A stretch of 64,000 bases of DNA from Lentinula raphanica (taxonomy: Eukaryota > Basidiomycota > Agaricomycetes > Agaricales > Omphalotaceae), in contig JANVFP010000003.1 of the NCBI GenBank assembly GCA_027919835.1, forward strand, positions 558,001 to 622,000, in the 5' to 3' direction. Shown here piece by piece: positions 13,781 to 39,921 of the stretch. A program made the position numbers and the translations under genes. The notes beneath the pieces are model-generated. The model saw only the letters and a program-made list of their open reading frames with translations. It was not told the origin of the DNA and searched no databases. The first letter of the stretch is position 1, and every line of letters starts with the position of its first letter.

Positions 13781-15737
13781 TCAAAAATCGTGAGGATGGA
13801 TAATTCGGGCATATACTAGAGCCGTGCGCCAGAGATTCACTACGTTCCTCTCCTCAGAGCGCTCCAGGGGAACTGAACGAAGAGCGGCTTCCATCAGCTG
13901 CATCTCGTCTGCAGTCATTGCACCTGAAGGCGGCTCGACTTCGACTTCGTTCAGTGTTTCAGGAGGTCCATGTTGTCCAAGCCACGTACTCGACCCTTGC
14001 TCGTATGCGTAATTCCGACGAAGAGACCGCAAAAGTACCTCATCCTGAAGTCCTTCCCAATCAACGCCAAAAACTTCGAGTTCTTCATCGCTCATTGCAA
14101 ACTGTTCCAAGGAATCGCCTCGTACGCCTTGTGCGAGCATATCGAAACCCCACATGTCCTCCGGACTACGAGCCGGACCATCACCGCGGCGCTGGGAGAT
14201 GCGATGACAGTTCCATCCTGCGGCCCAAAAGTTCAGGGATTGGTTGATAGCGTGGAGGAAAAGGTGTTGTAGAAGCCATATATGATTGCGATTGTCCACG
14301 TCAAGCTGATGCTCCAGTTCTAGAAGGGTGAAGTAGTCATTCCAGGATTGTGTGATGTAGTTTGACACGTCCACCCATAACCGTTCGATACGAACATTGT
14401 GGACTGACCTAGGGAAACAATCAGCAATGTATGAGGATTATAGACTTTGGAGAACTTTACCGTCCCCAAATATATGAACCTCGGCCTGATCCTCAAGCGT
14501 GCTCCATAAACGCTGCGACCCAAATGTTTTCCACTCCATGGTCACCACGCACCCGAGATGGAAGACCATATTGTGAAGCGGCAGACAAGAAAAGAGAAAG
14601 GACTGTTGATGAACGATTGTTGTTGGCAGCTCGAAGAGCTGTAATCATGCGAGAGTAGCCGTCGATGAAGCCATGAATGACGATGCCCCACCAGATCAAA
14701 CCTATGAAAGCTGATTAGACAAGAATATGAGCAGAATGATATAGCTATCCGTACGATGATGTCCATCGTGATGCCAGAGAGAATTCGGGCCAGGCACGGT
14801 GTAACGACGCCGACGAATTCTGATACGCTCAAAGACGCGGTGTACGGGATCGACCCGTGTGAGTGATTGGCCTATGGCTTCATATGGTATGATCTGTCCA
14901 AGCCTTCTAAGCATTCCATGAAGGATTTGGATGCCTGCTCGAGGATAATGTAAGCGTAGTAGACATATCAACGAATCGAGAGTGTCGTTCGATATATTGG
15001 AGCGGCGATTCGATGACGATGAGCTTTGAATTGAGCTGGCGGCGTTCTCAATATCTGGATGAAAGACTTCTGGAATGGAGTCGGAAGAATTTTCTTCAGC
15101 GTAGACCTGGTCTTCGAAAGGGACACCTCCCGCGCTAGCAATACCGTGTTCTAGGAGTGCTCTCCGTACTGTTCTACGACTCAAGCCAAGGAAGTCGGCG
15201 ATTCCAGCCGTCGAACGATGATTGTGTGCCCATTGCAAAAAGTTTGGGTCGATGATGGCCCGGGGACGACCTACCAAGCCAGTACGTTCCCAGTTTAAGA
15301 CGGTAGGATGACCATGGTGAGATTGTTCGACACGGTGGTTGCAGATTGTTTGGACATCGAATATCATGCATTGGATATTGCTGCGCAGGGTTTGCCATTC
15401 ATTTTGGTCTGAGAATATGTTTGAATTCTAGATTATCGTTAATTGATGTTCTTAAGACAGCGAAAATTGTGAGAAATACCTGAGAAACTATGTTAGAGTA
15501 TTCATTCATGTCCTCTAACAGCAACTGCAAGTGAAAAACATCGGTCTGGTCGTTGGCTACTTGATGGACAGCGGCATCGAATTGATGGTAGTGGCGTCTA
15601 AATTCTTGCAACAGTTCGATTTCGCTGTCAAATGGAGCACTCCTAACGATATTGTCATTGGCGTTGCAGAAGTCGATCCCGAAAACGATTATACAGGCTA
15701 AGAAGGCAAAGATTAAGAATGACCCATGCCGCGCCAT
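13781..15737 (-). pseudogene. DDE/rve integrase, left module copy (nonsense mutation)
   Basis: Same architecture as the copy at 37951-39921. It has a hydrophobic N-terminus (MARHGSFLIFAFLACIIVFG), a helix-turn-helix region (IADFLGLSRRTVRRALLEHG), first catalytic Asp in LWHHDGHH, second Asp in RGDHGVEN, and Glu in VRIERLW in the last exon. Four exons align with the right copy and the splice sites are conserved. The exon carrying RGDHGVEN has a TGA at 14493-14495 where the right copy has CGA (Arg). It falls after FMEHA and before GSGRGSYIWG, so it separates the last catalytic residue from the rest. The change is a C-to-T transition. Otherwise the frame is open to the end. Confidence 0.82.
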
Positions 15738-16004
15738 GATGGTTCAGAACAGAGTTTTTGAGGTGTTCCTGACATACCATATTTAGTGATCATCGGTTCC
15801 GGCTTCCGTTATCCGGTAGTACATAACATATCACAGAGTTTAACTTATGTCAAAATATACAAGAAGTGTAAAAAAATGGATTGTGTTCGAGCTATTGGCA
15901 AAGACAGTGTACAAGCATGCAATAGACGATGAGCAGAGCAGGAAAGGCGTGGGAAACTGATAACCACGCTGCATCGTTTCTTCACAACTCTCATCACCCT
16001 CAAC

Positions 16005-18271
16005 ATGAATCACCAGCAGTGGCTGCAATACGGGACCTTTTCTCCTCAAAACGACGACCAACATCCTCCTCCTTTAGACCTTTCTTTAGGTGCTGTCTGG
16101 CCAACCGAAAACCTTCAAGATCTTGACCCAAATCGCCCTGTCTCCACTGCTTATGGCTATGATGACTCCTGGTCGGCACAGGCCCTGGGGTGGATGACTA
16201 CCAACCAAAACTTCGACATGCCGGTCTCTAGCAATGAGGTGATCGAGGATCCAAATGTAGAACGGGTCATAGGTGCGCTGTGGTTTTTTGTCAGATTGAA
16301 TATTGATAGTGATGTAGTCATGTTCATTATAGCTATTCAACTGTACTTGGCGTTGGTGACGAACACGATCAACACTCCTGGGCTCATATCCGAGGTCGAG
16401 CTCGAGGTGGAAACCCACTCCATTACCGAAAGAAGTGGGATTTTCGAAATCAGCGTTAGATCAATTGTGTCGCTCACCGGTGGTGCATATCTTCCTCTCG
16501 AATTCGCGAACGCACTCCAGAACAGCGAGACGGGACTCACCACCGCTCAAAACCTACCTTCGTTGTTGCGTCCTATTCAAACGTTGGCCGATTTTCGTCT
16601 GCTTGCGCCCACAATGGAGATCTTGATCAATCCTCGATCGGATTTTCTTCTTCGATCAGTTCCTAACATCAATCTCCCATATGTCGTAGAGTCAGAGAGA
16701 CCAAAGTTTGTACTCATTCTATTGCAAGGCCTGATGGATCGGGCGTTCATCGCAAATTCCGCGTTCACTGCGTTCCAATCGGAACCTGCGAATCCGGATG
16801 TCTTCCATGCGGATTGTTCATCGGATGTAACGAATCCTTTGCCTTCGTCGTTTCGAAGTTTATTGCCACCCGTAACATCTCAGCATGCTGAACTTCCATT
16901 CGAATTAGCAAATCCGAACCACGAAGAGGCAAACGGGTCTGCTTCTGAAACGTCACCTGTTGCTTTTACGCAGATCGCTTCGCCGGTTGTGCCCCACTCG
17001 TCTGCTTTAGAGGTGGATGGGGTCGGCCCACGACCTACCCTGCAGAATATCTTGTCCGTTGAGTTCCACATTCCAATTCGCGCACGGGATATCGCGCATG
17101 CTTGTGAAATTATAGGTATTCTGGAACCGCGAGGTACACCAAAATCTACTGTAAACAATAAGCGATCATTTTCGGAAATTGTTCAAGACTGGTATAGAGC
17201 CTGGAAGCTTACCTTATGTCTCGGATATGACGAAACTAAAGGGGACCTGGATGCCCAAATGTACATGTGGGAGAATGGTCACAGTGAAACCTTTGAGCAG
17301 ATACTGAACCACGTGAACTGGAAGCGCAGTGACTATGAGCAGAAAACCTCCCTCTATACCTGCACCATATTCAGCCAGACTTTTGCAAAAGATTCCGATA
17401 ACTATCCAAACATGTTTTGCAAAATATCTGGATAGTTATCAGCACTGCCACAAATGAATATTTAAATCATTTAAAAAAGAATTAAAAAATAATAAAAATA
17501 CTAAAAAACTGGGATTAAGCAACAAATCAGGCACCGACCGTGGGGGTTAGCACTTGTGCTAACCCCCACATAGGGAGGGGTCTGATTTGTTGCCCAACAT
17601 AAGGAAACTAGGGTTAGGGGTTAGGGGGTTGGGGCCTGTTAGGGGTTAGGGGTTGAGGATATTTTTCATGGGTTAGGGGTTAGGGTTAGGGGTTGGGGTT
17701 GGGGGTTGGGAGGTAGCCCTAGACCTATATTACATAAGGGGGGTCTCAGTTTTCTCTAAAAATGGCTGGTTCAAGAGATATAAGCAATTCATTATTAAAA
17801 ATAATATTTTAATTCTTTTTTAAATCATTTAAATATTAGTTTTTTAGTAGGGCCGATGAGTTATCCAGATTTTTTGCAAAACATGTTTGGATAGTTATCG
17901 GAATCTTTTGCAAAAGCCTGGCAGAATCAGCTGATACCTGGGCCATCAATGCGACTTCTACGAAAGTGTGGAACACTGCGAAGACTATTACTGCAGGCCA
18001 AGGTGAGTCCACTGAAGTTGTGTTCTGAATTCTTCTGATTGTATGTCTTCGTCTCTTGATATCAGAGGATACCATATCTGATGCAAAACAAACTTGGAAT
18101 CGGTTATCCTTCTTTTTCCAATCGACTTCATATCTATCCTCCGGTAATCCACGATCTGTGCGGCCCGACTCGAGGGAGTACGATCTCACCTACCTCCATC
18201 AGAGCGAGGTTAGGAGAGATAAACCACACATCAAGAAATTTCTCATTGATCGCCCAGAATTTTCTGCTTGA
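16005..18271 (+). pseudogene. Protein X, left module copy, split by a MITE
   Basis: Divergently transcribed from the integrase and homologous to the gene at 35658-37653. It starts MNHQQWLQYG. Shared blocks include ADFRLLAPTMEIL (right copy PDYRILAPVLEVL), the FVLIL segment, and a C-terminal block with LVQDW-like (IVQDWYRAWK), LGYDETKGD and TFEQILNHVNW. A 571-bp MITE (17363-17933) interrupts the codons after KTSLYT. Downstream the frame resumes as TWAINATSTKVWN, matching LWARTATATKVWD of the right copy, then after an intron continues to LIDRPEFSA and a stop at 18271. Unspliced, translation would stop inside the MITE at 17435. I recognise no known domain. Confidence 0.78.
17363..17933. mobile_element. 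571-bp MITE, copy A (in protein X)
   Basis: Flanked by the 7-bp duplication ATACCTG (17356-17362 and 17934-17940). Terminal inverted repeats of roughly 70 bp begin CACCATATTCAGCCAGAC on the left and end GCCTGGCAGAATCAGCTG on the right, with the palindrome CTTTTGCAAAAG inside each. The interior has nested inverted repeats: GTGGGGGTTAGCAC/GTGCTAACCCCCAC and, outside them, GCAACAAATCAG/CTGATTTGTTGC. A tract rich in TTAGGGG also lies inside. No coding capacity is seen. A near-identical copy of the same length lies at 23536-24106. The 7-bp duplication does not settle the superfamily. Confidence 0.92.
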
Positions 18272-18591
18272 TTTTGCTGTTCAACGATTAGATACGAATA
18301 TTGCTCGACATGCTATAGTTTGCTTACCTGACACTGCAATGTACTAGATCACATCCAATGTACTAGTTCACATCCAATGTACCATACTGAATCAAATGCA
18401 GCGTTTTCCCTGTACATCTATGCTTCTTTACGCTGAATAGTGGACACGATTTCAATTCAAGAATAATTCAAGATTCTACAACATTCGACACCAACATACA
18501 GTACCTTACATGTAGATAATAGATTAAAAATAACAGATGAGTAACGATAGTGGAGATCTAAAGTCAGCAGGATGACGAAAGTGAAACCTCA
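18272..18591. other. Intergenic region between convergent X and Y (left module)
   Basis: Contains a small direct repeat of CACATCCAATGTACTAG near 18350-18385. I see no gene. Confidence 0.5.
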
Positions 18592-20781
18592 TTAGAATTT
18601 GGCAAGAAAGTGCGGAATTGAAGCAGCGCGAGCAAAAGTAGTCAAGAACGATGTAGTATAAAAGTTCGCCAAAGAGCGTTCAACTCGTTCAACAAGGGGA
18701 ATGAAATTATGTGCTTCCGATTGAACAGGAAATGGATTATACAACTCCTCTGGTTTGTCACCCTTCCAGCTCCTCATTACCTGGTGTATAGCACGGATAT
18801 AAGGCAGACGTTTCTGTATATCAGAAGCTGCAAGTCCTTCTTCAGCTTTGGCAACATCTACCTCATACCTAGACCCTATCCAGCACGCATCCAGTAGAGC
18901 ATTCCTTTGAGGTAGAGGGAGGCCGCTGTTGTCCAGAAGTCGATCCAATGCTACGAACTCCTGGCGAAAGCTGATTTCAGAAATTTCCCAGAGAATCTGA
19001 GATGCAACTTCTGAGGGCGGTGGTTCAGTGGTGCAGTCTATGAGTCGACCAGCAAATTCTTCGGCTCGGGGTTCCAAGTCATCGAGACTGAATGAACGAG
19101 TGTTCGTTTTTGCAATCTGGGTCTCAAGAAGGATTCGCATTTCGTTACGATAAATGGCATTTTTTGATTTTTCGGGCTTTTCTGAAGGATGTCCGCCAAC
19201 GATGTCAAGCAGGGAGCGCCATCGTTTGGCAGTCAAGTTGACCGGGTCTGTCAAACCATTGAGTGACTGGAGGATTAGAGGACGAATTCTGAGCCAACTG
19301 CGATAATAGAAGGCCCGAAGAGATGTGGTGGCTGGTCCATCTAATAATCTCGGAGGGGGAGGAAATAACCACAGTTGACAGTTTCAGGACGCCTCAGGGA
19401 CTGATTATAGGTGGAAAGAACCGCAAGAGCTCGCGACCAAACTGGGACCGTAGGTGGCATTGCTGGACTATTCAGGTCCAGGAACGTGTTGTTACCTTGT
19501 TTGTGAATTTGAGGCTTCTTGCGATGATTTTGAGAATCTATAGAGAGCGTCAGATAGATATTTGAGTCAAGAACAGATTCTTACATGGCATGGCCCTAGC
19601 AACAGAGCGTGAATTACCGCGATTACTCGAGTTACTCATACTGGCTTTGCTGGGAAGATGGTAGAAGCGCGCTTTAGATGCCAAGGCTTTTTGATATGAA
19701 TTCGGGCTCTGTGGCGTACTCAGTCCGAAGGTCGACGAAGGGAATACCAGCGAATGTAGATATGCATTCATTGCTATTAGACGTTCTGGTTTGATCGAGA
19801 GACCTTCCCAAATAACTGGGTGATTGGGTTCGGCATCAGTCCCATCCACGCGGAAACCAGAAGGTAATCGAATCATTTGCGAGCTATCCTCAGCTACCAG
19901 AGGGGCAGATCGGTCAATCCGAGCATCGGGGGTGTCCGTGACTGGGCGAACGAACCAGACTGGGATTCCCAGATGATACAATGTGTCAAGGGTAGCAAGG
20001 TTGTCCGTGAAGGCTCCAATTACATCCAATAGAGGTGGTATCTGAGCCAGCCGTATATTTTCGTCAACGGTAGCTGTCCACGATTGAGAACGATACCTGA
20101 TACGGGCATCTAATTCGAGAATGCTTCGTTGCAAGAATGCAACACGCATGTGCACGGTGTCACGAGGAGCTGCCATAAGTAGTGATTGGAGCATACGATT
20201 GACCTGTAGAGCACCCTGAGTGAGGTATGTATCTGGGTCATCGCTATTGGGAGGTAAGGTTTTGAGGACATCGTCTGCAAGAGATTTAATCCGTAGATAG
20301 AATTCATTGTCCAGAACACCCGCATCATACAACATGCCCCCAGTGTCGTCGTCAAAGTCGACATTCAAAGGGTTTATCCAAGCAGCAGCGAATGGGTGCT
20401 GGGGATTTGGGGAAGGTGTTCGTATCAGGGAAAGGTGTGGCAGGAGATGGTTGAAAGGTTGTGGGTAGAACAGGGGATCATCGTGGAAGTAATGTAAGTT
20501 GCGGCGTAGACGAACATATCGGTTTGACAATGGTGGCTCAAATAATATATCACAGTTAGGGGATGATATTATGTGGTCGTTTGGTAGTATGGCCCCTACC
20601 CGACCATCGAATGATTGTAGACCTAGATACCATATGAATGACATTCTGGAGAAAGAACAATAAACGTACTGGAGGTTGGATTGGAAAACCGGGTTAGGAT
20701 TTCTGGATGAATGCGGTACGTTTCAAAACTAAGCGGAACGGTGCCCAGAGCCTCAGGCATGTCGTCGTGACTGCCCTCCAT
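18592..20781 (-). pseudogene. Protein Y, left module copy (frameshift)
   Basis: Homologous along its whole length to the gene at 33106-35349. It starts MEGSHDDMPEALG at 20781. Exon 1 ends HPEILTRFSNPTSS before a GTACGT donor. The main exon contains SFDGRVGAILPNDHI, DPLFYPQPFNHLLPHL, RIKSLADDVLKTLP and YHLGIPVWFVRPV. The last part contains AKRWRSLLDIVGG and LANFYTTSFL. Around 19351-19362 the frame breaks: the right copy reads FFLPPPRLIDGP, while this copy reads YFLP and then runs into a stop because one base of a C-run is missing. The product is therefore truncated unless this is a sequencing error. No named domain is recognised. Confidence 0.75.
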
Positions 20782-21501
20782 TATTTTGACGATGGAAAAC
20801 CTCGCAGCGTAGAATCTGAGTTGAAATACGATGACAGGAGAAGGAATAACTGATCTTTGTACGTAGAAAGGGAATCCCGATCTACGTGCAGACGGCGGCA
20901 CCGATCTACGTGCAGGCAGTGGTGTTACGGCTTTGCACAATTGGTGGGGATGAGGATGAGTAGTGAGAGATGCCAGGAGGGGCATCAGCAAAATCACCTT
21001 GTCTCTGGAGACTCCAGGGACACCCCCCAAATCCTGAGCAACCTCAGAGTAATAAAAGTGCTTTAGAGTCTCTGGGCATCTCTGGGCATCTTTGAAAATC
21101 TCTGAGGGTGCCAAAATTTCTCTGAGAGAGCTGAAAGAGATAAAATCTCTCTAGGATTTGGGGGTGTCCCTGGAGTCTCCAGAGACAGGTGTGATTTTCC
21201 TGATGGGGAGATGGGAGAGAAGAAACAACGACCCTAAATCGGGCCAAGTTTGATGCGGTTATCATCAGCATGTGACTCACCCTAATATACCCATTCATCC
21301 CCTAGCGTCCACTGCCATGCGGACCATTTTTCTGACCCTAAGCTCACAGAACTCCATGCGATATGATGAGTGAAAACACATCGATTAAAATAATCTAGTA
21401 AGTAGTACAGTCGGTTACGAAGATGATAAGCTGCAGGACATTAGAAGCTGTGAGCAAGATATAGTATGATCGAGTGCAATGTAAAGAGCTACTCCGTTCT
21501 C
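20782..21501. other. Spacer between left HECT and Y genes
   Basis: Presumed promoter and leader of Y plus the 3' flank of the HECT gene, interrupted by the foldback element. I see no other gene. Confidence 0.5.
20983..21205. mobile_element. 223-bp foldback element
   Basis: Arms of about 53 bp, nearly perfect: the left begins CATCAGCAAAATCAC and runs to CCCCCCAAATCCT, and the right is its reverse complement. Each arm contains the near-palindrome CTGGAGACTCCAG. The HECT-to-Y spacing is 720 bp here and 512 bp in the right module, so this segment accounts for the excess and looks like an insertion. No target duplication is clear; the flanks are G-rich (GGGG left, GGG right). Confidence 0.7.
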
Positions 21502-24500
21502 CTATACAGTATTATAAGTACCAATAGCGGTAAGTATCTGGACGAAAAACCAATGGAAGATGCTGTCTTTAACATTGCGAGACGGCTCCGAGCCACTTTC
21601 ATGAGCATTACCCAACAGCTTCAAGAGATACGAGGCAGGGACTTGCATAAAGCGGGTACAGGTCTTGAATGAGATTGTTCCGTGCTCCAGGAGTCTTGCT
21701 CTCTCATTTGCTCGATGATCCTGGAGGCTAAAATACGTGGCATCAGTGTCATCTACAAGTACGACCTGAATGAATTCATTTCGTGAGTTCAATTTGTAGT
21801 CATTGAAGGGTGGCAACTTACCTCAATTGATCCTCCATCACTTGGGATATGAGGTGCACCTGTGGCTGCCCAGAAAAACATACGCATGCGAAAACCTTTC
21901 TCCGACGCGCCTTCTAATGTCACAACATTATCGAAGCGACCTTGCAGTTCTGCCATGAGCGAAGGACAAGGTACCGCGGAGCCCTCAAGAAACTCTCGGA
22001 ATATTTTCGAGAATTCGAATTCGGCCCAGTCAGGAATTGCTTCGCAGGCATCACGAAGGGCGGAGCGAGTAGCCACGCAAGTTCTATCGGTGTATTGCAG
22101 TGGAAGAGCGTCGTAGTCGCCATTGATGCGAGTGTCTAAGAGCGACAACACAAACTCGCTTGTTCCTCCGAAACAAGAAGCTGCAATCTGTTATATGTGA
22201 GATAGTGCACTTCGAGACACGAACTGAAAGCTGACATACCTGAGACAAATTGATATCCATGGGTTTACAGGGAAGTAAAAAGCCTTCTACGAATGCCTTG
22301 AAGTAAGGGTGATCAGTTGTTGCAGGACCGATGATTGCATTATGTAGCATTGTCCAGGCGAGTGAGCGGTGATGGCGTTCTGAACGGCCTTGCAAAGCTG
22401 ATACCTAATCAAGGGTTAGACTAGGTCGAACGAATGTGTTGACGAACTTACGAGAAGATTATGATAAGTTGCAAAGTGTAGCTGAAAATAGGAAAGATTG
22501 TCGTCGTCATAGTCAAGGGAGTTCCATTGGCTGAGGGTACGATAGAGATCTGGGAAAGTTTCCATCACGAGGTACTTCGACAATGACTTGAGGTTGGATG
22601 AGCTCAGAAGATAGACAAGAAGAAGAGGGTTGATGTTTGCTGGATAGTGCCCGTGAACAAGAGCTAATCCCACAGCGGCACCAAAGAGTTGAAGTTCCTT
22701 CTTTTTGGCCAGGGAGAGGTCTGCAGCGGAGGAGATCGGCACAGTGGAAAGAGTCGTGTAGTTGTCGATGACTTGAACCAAGAAATCGTGGAGATGACCA
22801 TCAAGTTTCTCTTTGAAGAAAAGGTCCATGACCTCCTGCTCGAGGCCAGGCCCCGAAGTGATATAGGTCCCGTTGGCAACCCTTGATGAAAAGGCGATGA
22901 ACATTCCCAAAAATACAGACTAACGATGAAGAAGGACTCACAGCTGGAAATGTCGATTTCCTGAAAGAAGCGTCGAGAAATCTTCTTCATTTATTGCACG
23001 TTGTACGAGGACAGTGTACGCAGCGAGCAATTCTTGTGGATTTTCGCCCTTGATCGAGAACCCCAGTGGTTCTGTGTCGATAACGTTTCGTAGATGTTCG
23101 TCAACGATCTTGAAGACTTTCGATCTGTTCTGGAAGAAGAATGTATAGTCTTCGTGGAGTTGTCGAGCAGGTCTCCAGTCTGTCTCCCAAAGGATATCAA
23201 CCTCCTAGAAAAAATCAGCATCCTGGAGAGTGAGATCATAGCAGATATCTTACTTCTATTGGATCTTCAGTAAGGACGGCTGTGCTGGACAGTGGACTGT
23301 TGCTTGAACTTGGATCGGATTGAGCATTGTTGCGAGAGTATGATGCACCGATCTGATTGTCTGCAAGATATGATGTTATAAGTGAGAAACAGGTCGAGAA
23401 TAAGTGTGAACCCACCTTCAGACGGATCACGAAGCATTCGAGCTACAACTCTAACTTCCTATGAGAATGTAGTCAGTATATAGAACCGGTTCGCGATAGT
23501 GTACGACACACCTCATCTTCAGTATGATCGTCTCTCACCATATTCTGCCAGACTTTTGCAAAAGATTCCGATAACTGTCCAGAAGCGTTTTGCAAAATAT
23601 CTGGATAGTTATCAGCAGTGCCACAAATGAATATTTAAATCATTTAAAAAAGAATTAAAAATAATAAAAAATACTAAAAAACTGGGATTAAGCAACAAAT
23701 CAGGCCCCGACCGTGGGGGTTAGCACTTGTGCTAACCCCCACATAGGGAGGGGTCTGATTTGTTGCCCAACATCAGGTAACTAGGGTTAGGGGTTAGGGG
23801 GTTGGGGCCTGTTAGGGGTTAGGGGTTGAGGATATTTTTCATGGGTTAGGGGTTAGGGTTAGGGGTTGGGGTTGGGGGTTGGGAGGTAGCCCTAGACCTA
23901 TATTACATAAGGGGGGTCTCAGTTTTCTCTAAAAATGCCTGGTTCAAGAGATATAAGCAATTCATTTTAAAAAATAATATTTAAATCCTTTTTTAAATGA
24001 TTTAAATATTATTTTTTTAGTAGGGGCAATAAGTTGTCCAGATTTTTTGCAAAACGTCTCTGGACAGTTATCGGGATCTTTTGCAAAAGCCTGGCAGAAT
24101 CAGCTGCGTCTCTACGGCAACCTAACTCGATTTCGTCCTCGTCGAGTGCGGTATATCCTTCGTCTACGTAGGCATTGGTGTCCGAGCGGAAAATCCCATA
24201 GATCCGTTTTGAGAGACAGAAATGTCTAGAAGTTGTGCTATCGGACCCAAGACTTTTCTCTGCTAGGTTGAGAACGAGGGAAACGTTGGGAGAGCGAATG
24301 ACTGCCCGGGAAAGTATATTAAGATAGAGAAACTGAGAACGTCAAAAAAAGAACTTACTCGTTTGAAGAATGAACTTCTTTGTATTGGTTATAACGTATT
24401 TCGCAATGCCGTAGTCGTTCGTGTTGAAGACAACGTCACGTAGAGTCATATCTGCAGATTCTACCTTGCCTGGGATCAACCGAGCAGTTTTCGCATTGTT

Positions 24501-28116: not shown

Positions 28117-28940
28117 TACTAGCAGTCTACCTATTTCTGCCGGAAATGATGACGTCACGTGGAATGTCATCGCGGGTACTCACCCCGCACGATCGAATGG
28201 CCCAAGAGTCCGGAAACTAGGTGAAATCCACTTTCCAGGTCCGGAAGTGAGATCATTTCTATGACAGCAATTCTGGGACAAAATTATTACTTGAACTGAC
28301 CGAGATTGATCGATATGATGTCACTTCGTTGGTTACCACTTCGACTTTTGTCAGTTCGATTTGACTTGGGTACACGACCGCTGTTTACCGCACATGGCAC
28401 AATATTTCTACCTACTGACATCTACTCTACCTTCTTTACATCCTGAAATTCTTCAACTACCCTCATATGGAGCTAATTGAGGTAGGAACAGGTTGACCGC
28501 ACATCTGAAACAACCAGCAGAACCTACGAATGAATGCCAGGAAAATGCAAATGGAGACCCAATAAGGAAGGTACCTTGGGGTCATGGGGTTACATTCCTA
28601 ATTGGGCGCCGAGTAGCATTTTAGCTAATCATGATAATACAACATGAGAAATGCGCCATCGAACTTGTTATGTAATAACAGTCAGATCTACGGTTCTACC
28701 AGCTGCTGGCAATGTGAATAGCCTCAGCTGGGTTTTGATGTCAACGCCAACACCAACTCTGTCTATCCCTTGGACGTATAAAGCATTTCGCCTCTGCATT
28801 TCTGCACACTCTCTCTCCCGTTATTCATCGTCTCTACCTTTCTTAATTCCTCTATAATCGCCCTCCTTTGCCAACCGTAAGTACTGGACATGTCTCGCTC
28901 TTTGCTTCAGCTGTACTGATTCGTACCCTTGCAAAGAATC
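28117..28940. promoter_or_regulatory. Upstream region and promoter of right HECT gene
   Basis: A TATAAAG box at 28777-28783, a pyrimidine-rich leader and a probable 5'-UTR intron (GTAAGTACTGG to GCAAAG) precede the start at 28941, as in the left module. The part from 28117 to about 28700 shows no gene and no clear module end. Confidence 0.55.
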
Positions 28941-31900
28941 ATGGACCATTCACAATGGTTGCAACAATCGTTACAGGCAATGATAGCCCATAATCCTCAA
29001 TTATTTCTTCAGATGATGCAACAGAACCAAACGCCGTCTGCTTCATCGTCTAATTCTACGGTTTCCACCCCACCACTCCTTACATTCCCATCAGCTTCCG
29101 TACCTACACCTTCACCCTTGTCCGCTGCGTCTGCTCCCACTCCTGTGCCTTTGCATTCACCTGCTCCTGCGCCTTTGCACGCACCCGATCCTGCGCCTTT
29201 GCACGCACCCGATCCTGCGTCTTTGCATGTACCTGCTGCTGCACCTTTGTTGGCTGCCTCTGCTCCTGCGCCTTTGTCAGCTGCCTCTGCTCCTGCGCCT
29301 TTGTCGGCTGCCTCTGCTCCTGCACCTTTGTCAGCGACTTCTGCTTCTGCTTCTTTCAATCCTGGTTTTCCGCCTGCTCTGGCTGCTCTAGCGCCCTCTC
29401 CCATAGCTCTGAATACTGTATCGCAGTCGCAGGCAAATCAGCCCATCTCGACTTACGTATCACCAGTCTCGATGCTTTCATCAGTAACTGCAAGAGCTGG
29501 ACCATCACAACCCTCGTCGAGTTCTTCGTTGCCACCACCATCGTTCCCATCAAGTATCACTGCTATACAATCCGCGAATCGTGATCGTTTAGGCCATGCA
29601 GCTTTGACGCTGAACCACAGTACCTCTGCTACAAAGAGGAAGAGGGGCTCTGGGAAGAAGGCACCTCGCCTACATGGGACATTCGAGGCTTCTAAGGTCG
29701 AAGATGCGATTGCAGTTGCGAACGATGGAACTCAGGTTGTTAGTTTGGTTGTATTGGTATACCCGCCGCGGCTTACACCTGACGAATGCAACGTATGTGT
29801 TTATCTTTCTCGAGGACTGTTTTGTGATATTGACTATGTGAACTTCCACAGACGTTTAATATTCCGGTCGGACTTCATCATTACTTGCAGAATCGCGATG
29901 CGTTCCAAGCTGTCCTTGAATCACTCAATCTCCTCCATCGATACGATAATCTACCGCTCGATACAAAAGTCGTCGATTTGCTCGAAGCGTTGCACTCTTC
30001 CCTCGTCCAATATGGCTGGGTTTTCCCGGAGAACCAAGATGTGTCACCCTTCTTCTCGCGACACGAGCGTCTCGCGATCCAGCTACTGCGCTTTTCAGGA
30101 AAAGGGAATACTAACAACAATGCCAAAACTCCTCGATTGAGCCCTGGAAAGGTCGAGTCAGAAGAAATGACTTTACGTCAAGTCGTCTTCAACACCGATG
30201 ACTATGGAATTGCAAAATACGCGATCAACAACTCAAAGAAATTCGTTCTTCATACAAGTGAGTACCGTCTGACATACTCAACACCTCATTCTGAATAAGC
30301 TTTACTGTGTAGTTATTCGATCTCAAAAGGTTTCACTGAATGTCAATCTAGCCGAGAAAGGGCTTGGGTCTGACAACAACAGTGGTAGACATTTCTGTCT
30401 CTCGAAGCGTATCTATGGTATCTTCCGCGCGGACACGAATGCTTATGTAGATGAAGGGTACAGCGCCCTTGATGAGAGTGAGATCGAGTTAGGATGCAGC
30501 AGAGAAGATTCGAGTCACGAAGATGAGGTGCGTGCAGATGCTACCGTGAAGAACATCAATTTACTGATCGTTCTTGTTCATAGGAGGTGAGAGTCGTAGC
30601 TCGAATGCTTCACGATACCTCGGAAGAATTACCTGGTGAGTCCATAAACATACTGCAATTTGTATACTCTAATATGATTGTTATGCAGCGACTCAACTTA
30701 CCGTCTCGAACTCCAGCAATCCAAACGGTCAACGGGCTGCGGCCCACAGCTCGAGTTCGCGTAACAGCCCGCTGTCCCAAACGAATACCCTAGTTCAAGA
30801 TATAGGACTCGACGTAGGCTATTCTCCACAAATCTGTCTCTTCGAAGCTCATGACTCAAAATCTAGGAGGTTGAGACCCTTTGGGAGACCGATTGGGTTC
30901 CCCCTCACGAAATAAATGAAAACCAGCTGTTCTATGTCCATGAGAGATCGAAGCTCTTCAAAATTGTCAACGATCGTATTCAAGAAGTCACCGGGACGGA
31001 ACCTATCGGATTCTCAGTCAAGGGAGAGAATCCACAGAAGATACTTCCCGTATATATGGCCCTCGTACAGCGTGCTGTTGACGAGGAAGATTTCTCTGCC
31101 CTTCTTTCTCAAAACAGACATTTTCAACTGTGAGTGTCCATGAACTATTCATTGCACATTTACAAATACTCATTGCTCATCATTCAGGATCGCTATCGAC
31201 AGCGATGGAGATGAAAGTTATGTAACATCTGGGCCTGGTCTTGAAAAGGAAGTCATGAATCTCTTTTTTCGAGAAAAATTCGACAGTCATATTCACGACT
31301 TTCTGGTCGAAGTTCTTGAGGAGTATACTACTCTTTCAACAGTGCCCCTTTCCTCTGCTGCAGATCTCTCTTCGGCCAAGAAGAATGAGCTCATGCTTTT
31401 CGGCGCTGCTGCCGGATTATCGCTCGTTCATGGGTGCTATCCGAAGACTATGAACCCTCTCCTTCTTATCTATCTTCTCAATTCAAGTAATTTGAAGTCT
31501 TTAACCAAGCAACTTGTGATCAACGTGTTCCCAGATCTATATCGTACTCTTGCACGATGGATTGCACTGGACCATACTAGCAATGAACTATCGTTCTTCC
31601 AGCCGCACTTCGCAACTCACCATAATACCCCGGTAAGTCATGCCTTGGACCCATCGACATATTTGCGCTATGCTGACTCTTAACTAGGTATCAGCTTTGC
31701 GCGACCGTTCAGAAAGGCATCACCGCTCACTCGCCTGGGCCATGCTACACAATGCAGTCGTTGGACCTGTCAAAACTGATCATCCGTACTTCGAGGCTTT
31801 CGTGAAAGGTTTTTTACTTCCTTGTAAACCTATCGGACTCGATTTATCTCAGGTATATCTGGTCTTGATTCTTGATATGAATCATGATCTCACCCGAAGT

Positions 31901-32593
31901 TCTATGACAGATTGCAGCTCATTGTCATGGAGGGATTAGGGAGTTTGTTTTGTCCCTCCAGGCTTCCCATATCACTGGTGATTATGACGCTCTCCGGATG
32001 GAACACTCCGATCGGATTTGTGCAGCTACTCGCACTGCCCTTCGGGATGCTTGCGAGATAGTTCCTGACTGGTCCGGGTTTGAGTTTCCAGAGATATTCC
32101 GAGAATTTCTTGAAGGGTCGGGTCTGCCTTGTCCTTCACTCATGGCAGAATTGCAGGGTCGTTTCAACGATGTTGTGACGCTTGAAGGAGCTTCGGAAAA
32201 AGGCTTTCGCATGCGAATGTTTTGCTGGGCAGCCACGGGTTCGCCTCACATCTTGATTGATGGAATGCCAATCGAGGTAAGTAACGTGAAGCTCAGAATT
32301 CAACCTCTCCCTGACCCGAGTCACTGCAGGTTACTCTTGTAGATGATACGGATCCTATGTACTTCAGCCTCCAGAGCCACAGAGGGGACGAGAGGGCACG
32401 GCTCCTCAACCATGGAACGATCTCCTTCAAAACCTGTACCCGAATGATGCATGTCCCCGCTTCGTATCTCCTGAAGCTGTTGGGTACTTCTTATGACAGC
32501 GAGTTCAACGAGCCTCATGATGTTAAGGATAGTATCTTCCACTGGCTTCTTGTCCAAATCCTTAGTAGTATTGGGTCTTACAATGTCGTGTAG
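28941..32593 (+). CDS. HECT-like E3 ubiquitin ligase of the four-gene module (right, intact)
   Basis: Roughly 1,000 residues in about nine exons. Start MDHSQWLQQSLQ, then a Gln-rich and Pro/Ala-rich repeat region (period about 30 bp in DNA, 29160-29330), a basic patch (KRKRGSGKKAPRLH), and LVVLVYPPRLTPDECN. A conserved middle follows (HYLQNRDAFQAVLESLNLL, HFCLSKRIYGIFRADTN, ETDWVPPHEINENQ). The C-terminal third resembles a HECT domain: GPGLEKEVMNLFF, FGAAAGLSLVHG, PLLLIYLL, FRMRMFCWAATGSP, then FKTCTRMMHVP, where the Cys (codon 32435-32437) occupies the place of the ubiquitin-accepting cysteine. All exons are open. E3 activity is inferred; the domain is divergent. Confidence 0.72.
29100..29345. 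repeat. Pro/Ala-rich coding repeat in HECT gene
   Basis: Tandem units such as GCTCCTGCGCCTTTGTCAGC encode PAPLSAASA and related peptides. The left copy has a shorter, diverged version. Confidence 0.85.
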
Positions 32594-33105
32594 GTCCTAG
32601 GAGATTGTTTGGTGACTCAGCTGCCATCGTACCACTTGATTTGTCTACCATACATCTACTCTACATTCGCGTTCGAGCAAAATCTTTTAATCATTGCCAT
32701 AATATCATGTTCTGTTTTGTGGTCGTTGACCTGAAATTTCAGTTGATCGTTTCCAAGAACTGTCATGTGAATCTGATGACGTGTCATCGGAAAAACGGAT
32801 AATCGGAGATTGTCATCCCGGACAATAGATTAGTATCACATGATCATCAACGGCTCAATCCGAATCCGAATTGGGGCCTCACTCATCTCTTGCTCTCTCT
32901 CTCACCCCCATCGCCACCATCGCCTACCCACTATCAGACTGGCTTTCACTGTCTCATTGTCTGGCTTGGCGGTCACCACTCTGCCTGCTTGTGGAACGGA
33001 TAAATCCGTCTGCTCGTACACCGGTTAAGACCGTCTCTGTCAGTTTGCTTTCTCCAATTCCCCAATATTGTTTCGCGTTTACAGGTCTTCATTATCCTAG
33101 ATCCT
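32594..33105. other. Spacer between right HECT and Y genes
   Basis: The same-strand arrangement implies the promoter of Y lies here. I see no gene and no foldback element, unlike the left module. Confidence 0.5.
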
Positions 33106-35349
33106 ATGCTGGTAAACAGTGCCACGTCCAGTGCCACGCGTGATCTCTTGGATACCCTTCCGCTCAATTATGCGACATACCGCCTTCACCCTGAAATATT
33201 AACCCGGTTCTCTGACCCAACGTCAAGTACGACTATCAGTTCCTTTCGCAGTTCATTCTATTCACCTCCATCTGTTCTCTAGCTCCAAAATCGTTTGATG
33301 GTCGGGTAGGGACCATACTAGAAAACGACTATCTCGTATCATCCCCCAATACGAATGTGCTCTTTGACCCTCCCTTGTCATCTCGTCGTGTTCGTCTGCG
33401 GCGAGATTTACATTTCTCACATGACGATCCTCTCTTTTACCCGCAACCCTTTGATGAACATCGACCGCATTTACCTTTAATCCGAGCTCCTTCCACTGAT
33501 CCCAATCACCCGTTCGCGATTGCCTGGACAATCCCTTTAGATGAACACTTCGACAACCGAGCGGGGAATATTCTATATGATGCAGCCATTTTGGACACCA
33601 CTTTCTATTTACGTATTAAGTCTCTTGCAGACTCTGTTCTTAAAACCATACCTGCCAATAATAACGACTCGGATGGGTTTTTAACACAGGGTGCTATACA
33701 GGTGGACCGTATGCTGAGCTTACTGCAGACGGCAGCTTCCCGTGAAGATATTCGTCTTCGTGTCGCCTTCTTGCAAAGAACCATCCTTGAACTAGACGCG
33801 CGTATTCAATATCATGCTCAACAGTGGGCAACTGTATCGCGGAGAAATAGACAGAACAACAACATACCGGATTCTTTGGATGTGATTGGTGCCTTCGCAG
33901 ACGATTTTTCTGTCCTCGACACACTATATCATCTCGGAATACCAGTTTGGTTCGTGCGCCCGGTCAAGAAGACTCCCGATGCCCGCATTGACTGCTCTGC
34001 CCCTCTGATTGCTGAGAACAGCTTACGAGTCATCGAACTACCTTCTGGGTTTCAGCTGGATGGAACTGATGCTGAACCCCATCATAAAGTTATTTGGGAA
34101 GGTCTTCACAACAAACCCGAGCGCTATGCGGCAATGAATGCTTATCTGCATTCGTTGCTATATCCTCCCTCCTCCTTTGGATCAAAACAGCCTCGGAGTT
34201 TGCCCTCTTATCAAAGAGCTACCTCGATAAGGGCATCCCCTTATCGTCCCTCTCATCATGCCAGCTCGAGTAGTTCGTACTCTCGCCAGTCTGGCTCCTC
34301 AGATTTACATCCCACTACAAGGCCCAAGCCATGTGAGTATCCACTGTTTCGATGCAATAATCAGTAGACAGTAGTTCATCGACGATTCTTCTTGCATAGA
34401 CTCTCGAAATGAAGTCAAGAAGCCACAAATTCACAAGCAAGGAGTTAATACATTTCTCCGTGTGAATGCTCCAGCAATGCCACCTGCAAATCCAGCCTGG
34501 ACACATGCCCTTGCATTGCACTCCAGCTATAATCAGTCACTCCAACGTCCCGAGATCGTGGAGTCTGGCTTCTTCCTTCCTCCTCCTAGACTGATCGACG
34601 GACCAAAACAGATATATTCGAGGATGTTTTATTATGGTACCTGGCTTAAAGTTCGCCCACTGATATTACAAACTCTCGATGGTTTGACGACAAAGCCCTT
34701 GAATTTGTCTGCCAAACGATGGCGATGTCTTCTCGATATTGTCGGGGGTCGTGTACCAGGGAAATCCGAAGATACAAAGACATCCATCTATCGTGTCGAA
34801 ATGCGCAACCTCCTTGACACCTTATTATCAAAATACAACACTCCCTCATTCGACCTCAATGATTCAACACCCCGAGTTGAACAATTCCACGAACATCTAG
34901 TAGATTGCAGGAGCGAACCACCGCCAACCCAAATAGCATCAAAAATCCTATGGGAAATAACAGAACTCAGTTTTCGCCACGAACTAGTCGTGCTAGACCG
35001 ACGGTTGGACCAAAGCAGTGTTTCATTGCCTGAGCGTGATACACTGTTGGATGCATGTTGGGTTGGGTCTCGGTATCAGCCAGAGATTGCCAGAGCCAAT
35101 GAAGGACTTGCAGCGCCTGATATACAACAATGTATACCGTATATCCGCGCTTTGCACCAACTCACGATGAGTTGGGCAGGTGACAAGCCGGAAGAGCTCT
35201 ACTCTGCATTTCCTGGTAACCCTGATGCACATAATTATATCAGCCTTGTCGAAAGAGTCGAACAGTCCTTGGCGAATTTTTATACGACCTCGTTCCTCAT
35301 TGTTTTTGGTCGCGCGGCCTCGATTCCACACTTTATCTCCACCAGCTGA
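33106..35349 (+). CDS. Protein Y of the four-gene module (right, intact)
   Basis: About 690 residues in at least three exons, starting MLVNSATSSATRD. Exon 1 ends before GTACGA near 33226. The long second exon encodes SFDGRVGTILENDYL, RRVRLRRDLHFSHDDP, DVIGAFADDFSVLDTLYHLG and IPVWFVRPVKKTPDAR, ending in a Ser/Tyr-rich segment. The last exon holds KKPQIHKQGVNTFL, an LPPPRLIDGP motif, AKRWRCLLDIVGG and a helical C-terminus ending RAASIPHFISTS. I remember similar GIPVW-type proteins as repeated in Agaricomycetes but know no assigned function. The Tyr/Trp-rich, RPL-containing middle and lack of signal peptide suggest a nuclear or cytosolic protein. It follows HECT on the same strand and converges with X. 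Confidence 0.68.
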
Positions 35350-35657
35350 TCAAAATTGTAACCTCTATGATTTCAATTGTTGTATTTATTCTTATTGCAC
35401 TGTATTCTTGCGGCGAAAATCCTACTTATACTCGCGTTGTTTCAAGTTCTGTTTTGACAATGGACAATGATTAAGTTAACATGCAAAAATTCAACGATTG
35501 TCTCTGTAGATGGAAAAATTTGCTCCAGATTTGTTCTATATACAACAAGTTCAGTGCTCAGTAACAGGTAAGCAATCCTATATCATCTAAACAGATTTCA
35601 TGGCTTATATCTAGGACAGGAAACAGCATAGCGAGGTCAGAAGAAGTGTTCGTACTA
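35350..35657. other. Intergenic region between convergent Y and X (right module)
   Basis: I see no gene. It is the counterpart of 18272-18591 and of similar length. Confidence 0.5.
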
Positions 35658-37653
35658 TCTATGGGCGATCGATGAGCCTAAGTTTGATGTTCTCCTTGTG
35701 ATTTTTTATGTCAAGTTGGTGCAAGTTCACGAGATCATATTCCAGCGAGTCCGGCTCTGAGAGGAGTATATCCCCGTCGTATTGGAAGGAGGTGGATGTG
35801 AAGAAGTAATGTAACCTCTTCCAGATTTCATACAAAGTCGCTTCTAATTTTTGATCTGCTGATATCTGGTCAGAAATACCCCAAGATGAACCTACTAGAC
35901 TTACCTTGGGACACTACACGGCTAAAATCCCAAACTTTAGTTGCTGTAGCTGTCCTCGCCCATAGGTATATGCCGTTCTTCATACTGAAGTCATCCTTGG
36001 TCCAGTTCAATTCACTGAGGATCTGCTCGAAGGTTTGCACCCTGCCGTCCCTCCAAGTGCAAGTTTGAACGGACACGCTCCCGCGGTTCTCTTTGTAGCC
36101 TAGCCTGAAGATGAGATCTCGTAGGTGATTCCAATCTTGGACCAACACCGATATCAACCGATTACGCCCTTGTGGACCTTTCGTACCGTGGGGTTTGGGC
36201 AACTCGAAGGTTGTGCATGCTTCATCTATGTCATTAGGCCACAGCACGCCGTGATCGGATGAAGATCCTGCGAATCTCTTAGAATGAGATGGAGGCAATG
36301 CGTCCTGCTTCCTCTTTGGAGGCCGAGATTGTTTGCTTGCAACGTAAGGTTCTGCGAAACGAATACCCTTCTTCGCACGAAGACTTCGCGAAATAGTAGG
36401 TAAAGTTTCATTTGGCACGAACATGAAATTCTGCTGGCAAGCAACTGAATTCCTCGGCACCAAGACAGACCTGGAATCTGCAGAGTGGGGATCGATTCCC
36501 GTCGTTAACGCTACAGATTGACTAGAAGGATTAGGTAAATCGAATTCATGGGCTGTGCCCAACGCAGGAATGGTATCCAATGATTGATCTGAGAGATTTG
36601 TACCCAACGACAGATTCGTACTCGACGATAGATTCGTACCCGACGATAGATTCGTACTCGACGAGAACGAGAGATGTGTACCTGATGAGAGATTTGGGCT
36701 AGCTGAGTGATTCGCGCTCGAGGGAGCAATTGACAGGCCCGACCAATAGTTTGTGTTCGACGAAGAAATCAGAGAGGGATTCAGGTTAGACAAAGGTTGT
36801 CGAGAAGTCTTGGCATTCAAAGCTTGAGGTTTCGGTTTGCAAGATGTCTACTCAAGACACATGGTCAGCTAGTTACAGCGATTTCGTTTGCAGACTCACG
36901 ATCTGCACAAGTATCAAAACGAAGTTGCATTCTCGTGCTAGATAGCCGACTGTAGAGTGCAAGTGGTCGCCATTGGGAACGGAGTCGAGTTGGAAAAGAT
37001 ATCCTGGACTGGTCAGAACTTCCAACACGGGTGCGAGTATCCGATAGTCCGGTAAGGAAAAGACTGAACGCGACATCATAGGTAAGTGACGCGCAGTTGC
37101 TAGGATAGTCCCCGCATCCCGAAACGCCAGTCTAATGTTGTCAGGAAGATCCTCGTTGACGGCAAGCGAAATGGCAGATGTGGCACTGATCGAAAAGATA
37201 TCGTCGTTGGAGGTCACAGAACCGGCGTTGGGATGGAGCTCAATGGCACACGATAACCTTGGAGCCATACGAGAGTCGGTTATCAGAGTCAAGAACAACA
37301 TAATCGCTGTGCAGAGCGATGATGAATCAGTATAAGAGTCAAAACATCAAAAGACATTGAAACACACGATCAGGAGCAAACGTGCGTGCCGCAAACGAAT
37401 TGTTGGCCTCATCAGCCTCATCTACGGCCACGTTCAAGTTTCCGTCCATTCCCATCCAGCCCAAAGGCCGTTCCATCGGCATATTGTTCTGATATACATC
37501 TGGGGCCAGGTTATTGAACATATGGGTGGAAAGGTCAGTTGTAAGGCTATTGGCAGGCCCATTAGAACCCAAAACTGTATCTTGTGGGTATAGAAAGGAG
37601 CTAGTCCCGTCATTTGAAGTTTGACCGCCGTACCAAGACTGTCTGCTGTCCAT
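35658..37653 (-). CDS. Protein X of the four-gene module (right, intact)
   Basis: About 580 residues in about five exons. Start MDSRQSWYGG at 37653. Exon 2 contains the ILATARHLP, PDYRILAPVLEVLTSPG and FVLILVQI blocks shared with the left copy. The middle is a Ser/Thr/Asn-rich linker with short repeats (SSGTNLSSSTNLS). The C-terminal part is the best conserved: VLVQDWNHLRDLIFRLGY, TFEQILSELNWTKDDF and LWARTATATKVWDF. After an intron (GTAAGT to CCAG near 35879) a last exon contains LYEIWKRLHYFF and ends LIDRP. The module context suggests a DNA-binding or accessory role, but no domain is recognisable. It is divergently transcribed from the integrase, from a 297-bp shared upstream region. Confidence 0.65.
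36590..36700. repeat. Short coding repeat in protein X
   Basis: Units of ACGATAGATTCGTACTCG type (18 bp) repeat four to five times and encode the SSTNLSSGTNL region. The left copy lacks it. Confidence 0.75.
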
Positions 37654-37950
37654 TGAGGGCGGTGATGCGCGTTGTGGATCAAGAAAGCAATTTCGGTATT
37701 ATTTTCTCACGCTTATCTTATACCGCTCACAATCCGGAGCAATGAGCAATCCTCACGCTCTACTATCCACCGACGTTTTGCAACCTCTATACCAGCTATA
37801 CCTCAACTCACTATAATTATCACCCCTGTTTGCTTCATACGTAGTCTAAAAGCTTCCTTATGATCAGTGGCCTGATTTAGATAATGGAAGATCTATCAAA
37901 AACTGAAACTGGAAATTCCGAAAATATCGGATGCTTTCTTTCATTCAACC
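37654..37950. promoter_or_regulatory. Divergent promoter region between X and integrase (right)
   Basis: These 297 bp separate the divergent starts of protein X and the integrase. The left module has 267 bp in the same position. No shared motif was certain by eye. Confidence 0.45.
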
Positions 37951-39921
37951 ATGACGCTCTTTACTGTCTTTGCCCTATTCCTATCACTATGCTTGTCTAT
38001 TGGACCAGATTTTTGCAGAGCTAGTGATTCTGCTACAATTCCTTCATTCTCCGGCTCATCAGAACTACTCCAAGGATTCAGACAGCATTACCACGCATTC
38101 GATTCAGCTGTACACCAAGTTGCAAACGATCTGACGGATGTCTTCCACTTACAAATGCTATTAGAAGACATGGCGGAATTCTCTAATCTTGTTGCTCAAG
38201 TGTGTTCTTGTAACCATATCTGTCTTCTCGAACTCAACAACTAATGTTCTCTCCACAGCATTCAAACGTATTCTCCGACCAATCTGAATGGGAAACACTC
38301 CGCAGCAATCTTCAACACATGTTACTCGATGTTCAAACAATACACAGCCGTCGCGTTGAACAGTCACACCATGGTCGCCCTGAAGTTATACGCTGGCAGT
38401 ACACTGGTTCAGCAGGTCGCCCCCGAGCAGTCATCGACCCGGATTTCTTGCGGTGGGCACGTACTCACCGCACTAATACTGGAATTGCGGACTTTCTTGG
38501 GGTGAGCCGTAGAACGGTACGGAGAGCGCTTCTGGAGAATGGAATCGTCAGTCCAGGAGATGTTCCCTTCGAAGACCAGGTTTCTATCCCCAACGAGAGT
38601 ATTGACGATATCCTCAATCCAAATCTTGAACTTCCCAGTAACTTTCATCCTGAAATTGAAACTGCATCAAATTCTATCCAATCTTCTTCTTCATCCACTC
38701 GCCGTTCCAATATGTCTAACGATGCTCTTGATTCATTGACACGCTTATTGCGGTCGCACTATCCACGAGCAGGGATTCAGATGCTTCATGGGATGCTTCG
38801 AAGGCTTGGGCATGTTGTACCATATGAACGCATACGCCAATCGCTCATACGAGTGGACCCTGTGCATCGTGTCTTCGATCGTATAAGGATTCGTCGTCGT
38901 TGTTACACGGTACCTGGTCCGAATTCTCTTTGGCACCATGATGGCCACCACCGTACGTACAATCATCCAAGTCGAATTCATATACTGTCTGACTTTCTAT
39001 AGGCTTAATCAGGTGGGGGATTGTCATTCACGGCTTCATTGATGGTTACTCCCACATGATCACAGCTCTTCGAGCTGCTAACAACAATCGTTCATCAACT
39101 GTTCTCTCTCTTTTTTTGTCTGCTGCTTCACGGTACGGCCTTCCGTCTCGCGTACGTGGTGACCACGGGGTCGAAAACATATGGGTCGCGGCGTTTATGG
39201 AGCAGGCTCGAGGATCAGGTCGGGGCTCATATATTTGGGGACGGTAATTTGCTTCATTCTCTTTCAACCAAATGTGATGTTCATGGATCATTATAGGTCA
39301 GTCCACAACGTTCGTATCGAACGATTGTGGGTGGACGTGTCGAACTACATCACCCAGCATTGGAGCAACCATTTTCAACAATTGGAACTCGACCATCAGC
39401 TTGATGTGGACAACGCGAATCACATATGGCTTCTCCAATATCTATTTCTTGACATCATCAACCAATCTTTGAATTTCTGGGTAGAAAGTTGGAATTGCCA
39501 TCGCATTGCCCATCGACATGGTGATGGACCGACTCGCAGCCCAGAGGATATGTGGGGATTTGATATGCTTGCGAAAGGTCTGCGCGGTGATTCGTTGGAT
39601 CAATTCGCGATGAGCGATGAAGAATTAGAACTGTTCGGAGTTGACTGGGAAGGGCTTCGGGACGAAACGATACTGCAATCTCTTCGTCAGAATTATGCGC
39701 ACGAGCAAGACTCTAATACGTGGCTTGGACAACATGGACCTCCAGAACAACTCAACTCAGTGGAGGTCGAGCCTCCTCCAGGTTCTCTGACAGCTGATGA
39801 AGTAAAACTGATGGATGAAGTACTGCGACCATTCGCCCGAAGTTGTGACGAAGGTGATGTAGTGAATCTATGGCGTGCCGCACTCGTATATACTCGAGCT
39901 CTCTATCCTCATGCATTCTAG
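37951..39921 (+). CDS. DDE/rve-type integrase of the four-gene module (right, intact)
   Basis: About 600 residues in four exons. The N-terminus MTLFTVFALFLSLCLSIG is signal-like. A helical block follows (FRQHYHAFDSAVHQVAND), then a helix-turn-helix (IADFLGVSRRTVRRALLENG) and a Ser-rich linker. The catalytic core has Asp in LWHHDGHH (codon 38940-38942), Asp in RGDHGVEN (39161-39163) and Glu in VRIERLW (39319-39321), with 34 residues between the second Asp and Glu, close to the D,D-35-E of retroviral-type integrases. The C-terminal exon contains NHIWLLQYLFL and SPEDMWGFDML. Introns with GTACGT/ATAG and GTAATT/ATAG borders flank the core exon. No stop or frameshift is seen. The likely role is strand transfer for the module. 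Confidence 0.85.

What the first reader, a model, noticed from the sequence alone, without database searches (positions are those of the whole stretch)
13781..39921. A four-gene module (HECT-like ligase, Y, X, integrase) present twice in inverted orientation
Two copies carry the same four genes in the same order and relative strands, with conserved intron positions, over about 11 kb each. The proteins are diverged (often only 60-80% alike by eye), so the copies are not a recent local inversion-duplication but two independent lineages of one unit. An rve integrase travelling with a HECT-type E3 ligase and two orphan proteins is an unusual combination. I infer a large eukaryotic mobile element whose ligase might target host repair or silencing factors. 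I know of no named superfamily with this content, but I cannot search.
Basis: partly seen in the sequence, partly recalled or inferred. Interest (0 to 1): 0.92.

Follow-up and report, generated by a model that had tools for sequence, protein, structure and literature searches.

The report
Mushroom transposon carrying a ubiquitin ligase
The window holds two separate copies of a large cut-and-paste jumping gene of a shiitake-type mushroom that carries, beside its transposase, a divergent ubiquitin ligase and two unknown proteins, which suggests that a DNA transposon may use the cell's protein-tagging machinery for its own ends.

The parts
12705..26153 (-). Element copy 1, complete from terminus to terminus, decayed (stop in I, frameshift in Y, inserts in H and X)
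28260..41141 (+). Element copy 2, complete; H, Y, X and I gene models all open
12699..12704 (.). target duplication of copy 1, GAGATG
   Evidence: one search printed 0 because I gave a start one base too high
26154..26159 (.). target duplication of copy 1, GAGATG
28254..28259 (.). target duplication of copy 2, CATTTC
41142..41147 (.). target duplication of copy 2, CATTTC
28260..28285 (+). H-side terminal inverted repeat of copy 2; 20 of 26 positions identical to the I-side repeat
41116..41141 (-). I-side terminal inverted repeat of copy 2
26128..26153 (-). H-side terminal inverted repeat of copy 1; 21 of 26 positions identical to the I-side repeat
12705..12730 (+). I-side terminal inverted repeat of copy 1
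28941..32596 (+). H of copy 2: HECT-fold protein, 10 exons, 1050 aa, cysteine motif at residue 999, basic patch at residue 232
33106..35349 (+). Y of copy 2: orphan protein, 3 exons, 706 aa, no Pfam or PDB match
35658..37653 (-). X of copy 2: orphan protein, 4 exons, 615 aa
37951..39921 (+). I of copy 2: DD34E transposase (D311, D368, E403), 4 exons, 602 aa, rva_4/rve core, signal-peptide-like start
   Evidence: (relatives)
21505..25584 (-). H of copy 1, interrupted by insert B
18601..21150 (-). Y of copy 1 (model covers 18601-20754; its first exon lies in the ORF up to 21150), one frameshift
16005..18271 (+). X of copy 1, interrupted by insert A
13784..15719 (-). I of copy 1, one in-frame stop

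Best explanation
Two independently inserted copies of a 12-13 kb DNA transposon of the IS3EU/GingerRoot superfamily in a Lentinula raphanica genome. Shown by sequence: complete elements with TA..TA termini and 6-bp target duplications; a DD34E transposase related to IS481/IS3; four genes that have stayed together at many loci; a HECT fold with a conserved cysteine motif in H; purifying constraint on H, Y and I. Inferred: I binds the two ends, cuts the element out and joins it to target strands 6 bp apart. H loads ubiquitin on its cysteine and passes it to a nuclear protein, most likely a host factor that silences or restricts the element (about 0.4), otherwise the element's own transposase or strand-transfer complex (about 0.3). 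Y and X would be partners: substrate adaptors, end-binding or regulatory proteins.
Against: Pfam HECT matched 0 of 14 relatives at E up to 1, and PDB sequence search found no HECT. The H model is only half confident (mean pLDDT 66.4, pTM 0.51) and TM-scores are low (0.15-0.25 by query, 0.14-0.53 by target among the rows shown). dS is near saturation (1.25-1.48), so omegas are rough. Superfamily placement rests on termini, duplications and profile hits, not on a tree with Repbase sequences. 12 of 39 integrase clusters show no H, Y or X, and 5 more show H and I only. No expression, activity or substrate data.
Confidence: 0.74

Rival explanations
1. H acts on the element itself: it ubiquitinates the transposase or the strand-transfer complex, so that the complex is taken apart or copy number is held down.
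For: H, Y and I travel together and all are constrained; a ligase encoded beside its substrate would be kept. Precedent in kind: Helitrons carry deubiquitinases proposed to protect proteins needed for transposition (passages of PMC9741609).
Against: Nothing tested here links H to I. Five H+I-only clusters would still fit.
Confidence: 0.3
2. H is a HECT-shaped protein without ligase activity, used as a scaffold or DNA-binding partner.
For: Very divergent: no Pfam HECT match in 14 of 14, 9-14% identity in structural alignments.
Against: The cysteine motif is kept in 12 of 15 relatives, the other three being truncated or gapped there, including relatives at 32-35% identity to P0121.
Confidence: 0.15
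3. H, Y and X are host genes picked up by chance and carried along without a role.
For: IS3EU elements elsewhere carry different extra genes (TET/JBP, alpha-kinase; passages of PMC12730594); some loci here show I without them; a C30 element seems to have taken up host-like fragments.
Against: Omegas of 0.15 and 0.22 over dS above 1, conserved order at 12 loci, and linkage of H to I in other genera.
Confidence: 0.07
4. A local inverted duplication or assembly artefact in the window.
For: The copies face each other 2.1 kb apart.
Against: Divergence of about 30% in protein, different target duplications and different closest partners.
Confidence: 0.01
5. The element belongs to another superfamily: IS481EU, Ginger1/2 or Polinton.
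For: The transposase matches NCBIfam IS481 better than IS3 in the 3 of 4 relatives that match; Polintons also make 6-bp duplications (passages of PMC10045372).
Against: IS481EU makes duplications of about 4, 15 or 25 bp against 6 bp in 11 of 11 here. The paper reports that IS481EU and IS3EU are not separated in its tree, so an IS481 match does not decide. No C-x2-C in I, no polymerase-type match among the ORFs scanned.
Confidence: 0.08

Closest known systems
IS3EU/GingerRoot DNA transposons (Repbase; Kojima and Bao 2023, PMC10045372, passages read)
   Same: TA..TA termini, 6-bp target duplications, DDD/E transposase related to IS3/IS481 without a C-x2-C zinc motif
   Different: H (HECT fold), Y and X; an H-Y-X block found in both orientations; signal-peptide-like transposase start. 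None of these appears in the passages I read ('hect' and 'ubiquitin' 0 occurrences in the main text)
TET-positive IS3EU of rust fungi and Tuber (Kojima 2025, PMC12730594, passages read)
   Same: fungal IS3EU, 6-bp duplications, extra genes beside the transposase; rust termini TAYGG..CCRTA against TATGA..TCATA here
   Different: their extra genes are TET/JBP dioxygenase and alpha-kinase; here HECT-fold H, Y and X, and no TET/JBP seen among the ORFs scanned. 'hect' and 'ubiquitin' 0 occurrences in the main text
HECT E3 ubiquitin ligases (NEDD4, SMURF2, UBR5, HUWE1, E6AP)
   Same: predicted fold over about 350 residues and a T-C-x5-[ILV]-P motif in the last 60 residues (the motif's equivalence to the HECT catalytic cysteine is recalled, not from a call)
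   Different: no Pfam HECT match; N-terminal half without a match; carried by a transposon
Helitrons with deubiquitinase domains (VTD, OTU; PMC9741609, passages read)
   Same: a transposon that encodes a ubiquitin-pathway enzyme
   Different: removes ubiquitin rather than adding it; rolling-circle element; domain lies inside the RepHel reading frame

Membership tests
IS3EU/GingerRoot | TA..TA termini | tested here: met
   TATGA..TCATA in 11 of 11 two-ended elements
IS3EU/GingerRoot | target duplications usually 6 bp | tested here: met
   exactly 6 bp in 11 of 11; 9 single-ended hits were not tested
IS3EU/GingerRoot | DDD/E transposase of the IS3/IS481 kind without an HHCC motif | tested here: met
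   D311-D368-34-E403, no C-x2-C; rve and rva_4; IS481 and IS3 profiles in 3 of 4 relatives
IS3EU/GingerRoot | transposase clusters with Repbase IS3EU/GingerRoot in a tree | not testable with these tools
   Repbase sequences are not held
IS481EU | target duplications of about 4, 15 or 25 bp | tested here: not met
   6 bp in 11 of 11; definition from passages
Polinton/Maverick | family B DNA polymerase beside the integrase (recalled definition) | tested here: not met
   no such match in the 10 ORFs scanned; H, Y, X and I account for the long exons of copy 2
HECT E3 ligase | HECT fold | tested here: met
HECT E3 ligase | catalytic cysteine motif near the C-terminus | tested here: met
   12 of 15 relatives; the other 3 are truncated or gapped there
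HECT E3 ligase | match to the Pfam HECT profile (a convenience, not a definition) | tested here: not met
   0 of 14 at E up to 1; the window's loci are not among the 14 matches of the genome scan. UniRef names 2 of the 16 relatives HECT domain-containing
HECT E3 ligase | ubiquitin thioester and transfer | not testable with these tools
   needs biochemistry

The most novel reading that the evidence does not exclude
A DNA transposon lineage that carries its own working HECT-type ubiquitin ligase, with two dedicated partner proteins, to destroy or redirect host proteins that silence or restrict it: a ubiquitin-based counterpart of the TET/JBP counter-silencing genes of other fungal transposons, used by an element whose transposase enters, or is held at, a membrane through a signal-peptide-like start.
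Probability: 0.25. Interest if true: 0.88.

Novelty: new variant of a known kind. Interest (0 to 1): 0.66.

Why it matters
Fungal DNA transposons are known to carry demethylase-type genes that probably counter silencing. A conserved, constrained HECT-fold protein in an IS3EU lineage points to a second route, through ubiquitin. It gives a defined test system, a cultivable mushroom genus with near-identical copies and exact ends, for asking what transposons degrade. The block that is found in both orientations, and the secretory-type start of a DNA transposase, are each testable oddities.

Tried and rejected

Relatives of H in other fungi: 16 hits, all Lentinula, Marasmius or Paramarasmius; Y: 20 hits, Lentinula and Marasmius. 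Both searches scored only about 8000 candidates that share exact words, so wider absence is not shown. Integrase: 627 hits, 120 listed.

Paper searches: ten. No listed paper reports a HECT ligase in an IS3EU or other DNA transposon, but several listings were capped (25: 30 of 35; 50: 17 of 18; 67: 12 of 60; 77: 10 of 6,261), most subscription papers are not held, and Repbase, where such entries could sit unnamed, could not be searched. Read as passages: PMC10045372, PMC12730594, PMC9741609. All others: listing only.

One search printed a duplication of 0 for copy 1 because I gave a start one base too high; one search repeats it correctly. An earlier count said 25 of 26 rows; the right count is 26 of 27 (21 distinct places), and four integrase loci (L017, L023, L024, L036) gave no row.

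Full report
What was checked. The window is C3:558001-622000 of an unnamed 49.06-Mb, 75-contig genome. Contig lengths of four of its contigs equal those of Lentinula raphanica C8R42 proteins found by homology (1,063,900; 1,616,403; 180,886; 550,488), so the host is very probably that strain (inference). Open frames and inverted repeats show two facing copies of a four-gene unit. A spliced aligner gave H (10 exons, 1050 aa), Y (3 exons, 706 aa) and I (4 exons, 602 aa) in copy 2, and the same genes in copy 1 at 703/1000, 440/680 and 445/588 identical residues. X (4 exons, 615 aa) is less conserved, 147/418.

Ends. Copy 2 and a near-identical copy on contig C11 stop matching at the same points. 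The junctions read TATGA..TCATA. A terminal-repeat pattern has 15 forward and 15 reverse matches in the genome against 0 and 1 for the reversed-pattern control. Twenty of the 30 matches pair into ten elements, and the C52 match was paired afterwards. All 11 elements with both ends have an exact 6-bp direct duplication, each of a different sequence. The other nine matches are single ends and were not tested. Copy 1 is 12705-26153 with GAGATG, copy 2 is 28260-41141 with CATTTC. The two terminal repeats of an element agree at 20 to 21 of the 26 positions compared.

Copies. Copy 1 has a partner on C8 (pieces 98.1-99.6% identical) that lacks three inserts of copy 1. In the C8 partner H, Y and I align without stops or frameshifts. 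Copy 1 is therefore a recent insertion that has since decayed: a stop in I, a frameshift in Y, and inserts in H and X. Copy 2's C11 partner carries an insert in exon 1 of I.

Co-occurrence. Searches with I, H, Y and X give 58 clusters: 14 clusters hold all four genes, and these resolve into 17 loci with all four. Twelve have the window's order H> Y> <X I>. Five have <I H> Y> <X, that is, the H-Y-X block inverted relative to I. One of these five, C52:162676-175806, is complete with its own duplication, CTCATC, and keeps the window's terminal-repeat polarity: the '..GGGACTTTATT' end lies on the I side. So the block, not the whole element, is inverted. Of 39 clusters with I, 27 have at least one of H, Y or X, and 12 have I alone at this sensitivity. 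Y alone occurs in 12 clusters, mostly at about 27-42% identity, perhaps in other transposon families.

Other genomes. Equal contig lengths and locus-tag prefixes link H and I in Paramarasmius palmivorus (VNI00_008789 and 008798), in Marasmius sp. AFHP31 (PQX77_018223 and 018216) and in another L. raphanica assembly (EV361DRAFT, 22,764-base contig); H and Y (EV360DRAFT_75949 and 75948), and Y and I (EV360DRAFT, 33,648-base contig) in another. This is inference from listed lengths; the contigs themselves were not read.

Transposase. I has a helix-turn-helix-like stretch (weak Pfam matches), an rva_4/rve core and D311, D368, E403 with 34 residues between the last two, and no C-x2-C. NCBIfam's IS481 model matches 3 of 4 relatives at 2.3e-10 to 1.5e-12, its IS3 model the same three at 0.01 to 9e-7; the fourth matches neither. 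Kojima and Bao (PMC10045372, passages) state that complete IS3EU families always have TA..TA termini and usually 6-bp duplications, that GingerRoot joins IS3EU with strong support, and that IS481EU is not separated from them. The element meets these features. A tree with their sequences could not be made.

Constraint. Between copies 1 and 2 omega is 0.150 for H (926 codons), 0.217 for Y (606) and 0.102 for I (556), with dS 1.25-1.48. The dS values are near saturation and copy 1 is partly decayed, so the numbers are rough, but H and Y behave like working genes of the element.

How it most likely works. Shown: a mobile element, four genes, HECT fold, constraint. Inferred from the transposase family: excision and insertion by a DDE enzyme with a 6-bp stagger. 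Inferred for H: ubiquitin transfer to a nuclear target. Fungal IS3EU elements elsewhere carry TET/JBP and alpha-kinase genes (PMC12730594, passages), and the TET genes are proposed there to help escape methylation-based silencing; a ligase against a silencing factor would be the same strategy by other means. The main rival is action on the element's own proteins; Helitron deubiquitinases have been proposed to protect proteins needed for transposition (PMC9741609, passages).

An oddity. At 12 of 12 representative loci the transposase starts with a hydrophobic stretch that ends in an invariant C-x-A, and AACC precedes the ATG in 9 of 12. The wider scan gives 26 of 27 rows, 21 distinct places, with maximal hydropathy 1.54-3.11; four integrase loci gave no row. 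pN/pS there is 0.65 against 0.25 in the rest of exon 1. Among 37 relatives longer than 520 residues, two (Collybiopsis, Tetrapyrgos) start in this way and 35 do not. No downstream methionine precedes the conserved LLxxFR stretch in copy 2, so the start seems real. A signal peptide on a DNA transposase is unexplained.

Verdict. Real, mobile, and a member of a named superfamily by its tested features; new in its gene content as far as my searches reach.

Noticed in passing
window 37951-38060 and the starts of I at other loci: The transposase begins with a signal-peptide-like segment ending in an invariant C-x-A at 12 of 12 representative loci; 2 of 37 long relatives in other genera share a hydrophobic start. 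Unexplained.
   Followed up: partly
C52:162676-175806; C49, C55, and two loci on C1 near 1.87-1.90 Mb: Five loci have the H-Y-X block inverted relative to I; the complete C52 element keeps the terminal-repeat polarity of the window's type.
   Followed up: yes
window 17363-17933 and 23536-24106: Two related 571-bp inserts in copy 1 with 7-bp duplications (ATACCTG, CGTCTCT), each with 7 TTAGGG units inside (telomere-like), in X and in H.
   Followed up: partly
window 20983-21205; C11 integrase exon 1: Small inserts with CATCA..TGATG ends, like the PlavakaB termini given in PMC12730594 (passage); the C11 one breaks exon 1 of I.
   Followed up: partly
L056-L057, C30:554001-572000: An H+I element without detectable Y or X; between H and I and downstream lie other ORFs, including one that looks like a biotin-carboxylase fragment (named by eye, no call).
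   Followed up: partly
C1:1020018-1054829; C8:1163910-1181254: Other facing pairs of elements like the window's pair; whether insertion near another copy is favoured was not tested.
   Followed up: no
C24:239305-272298 and C7:279946-299442: Elements swollen to 33.0 and 19.5 kb but still with matching 6-bp duplications, so probably nested insertions.
   Followed up: no
genome-wide, for example C38, C53, C23:735 kb: Y relatives at about 30-35% identity without detectable H, X or I nearby.
   Followed up: no
window 27618-27670 and 28076-28128: A 53-bp inverted repeat, 87% complementary, in the spacer between the two elements.
   Followed up: no
window 12970-13179: Array of 21-bp units between I and the end of copy 1.
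   Followed up: no
window 44779-45537: ORF with an ATG9 (autophagy) Pfam match at E 1.1e-9 beside copy 2.
   Followed up: no
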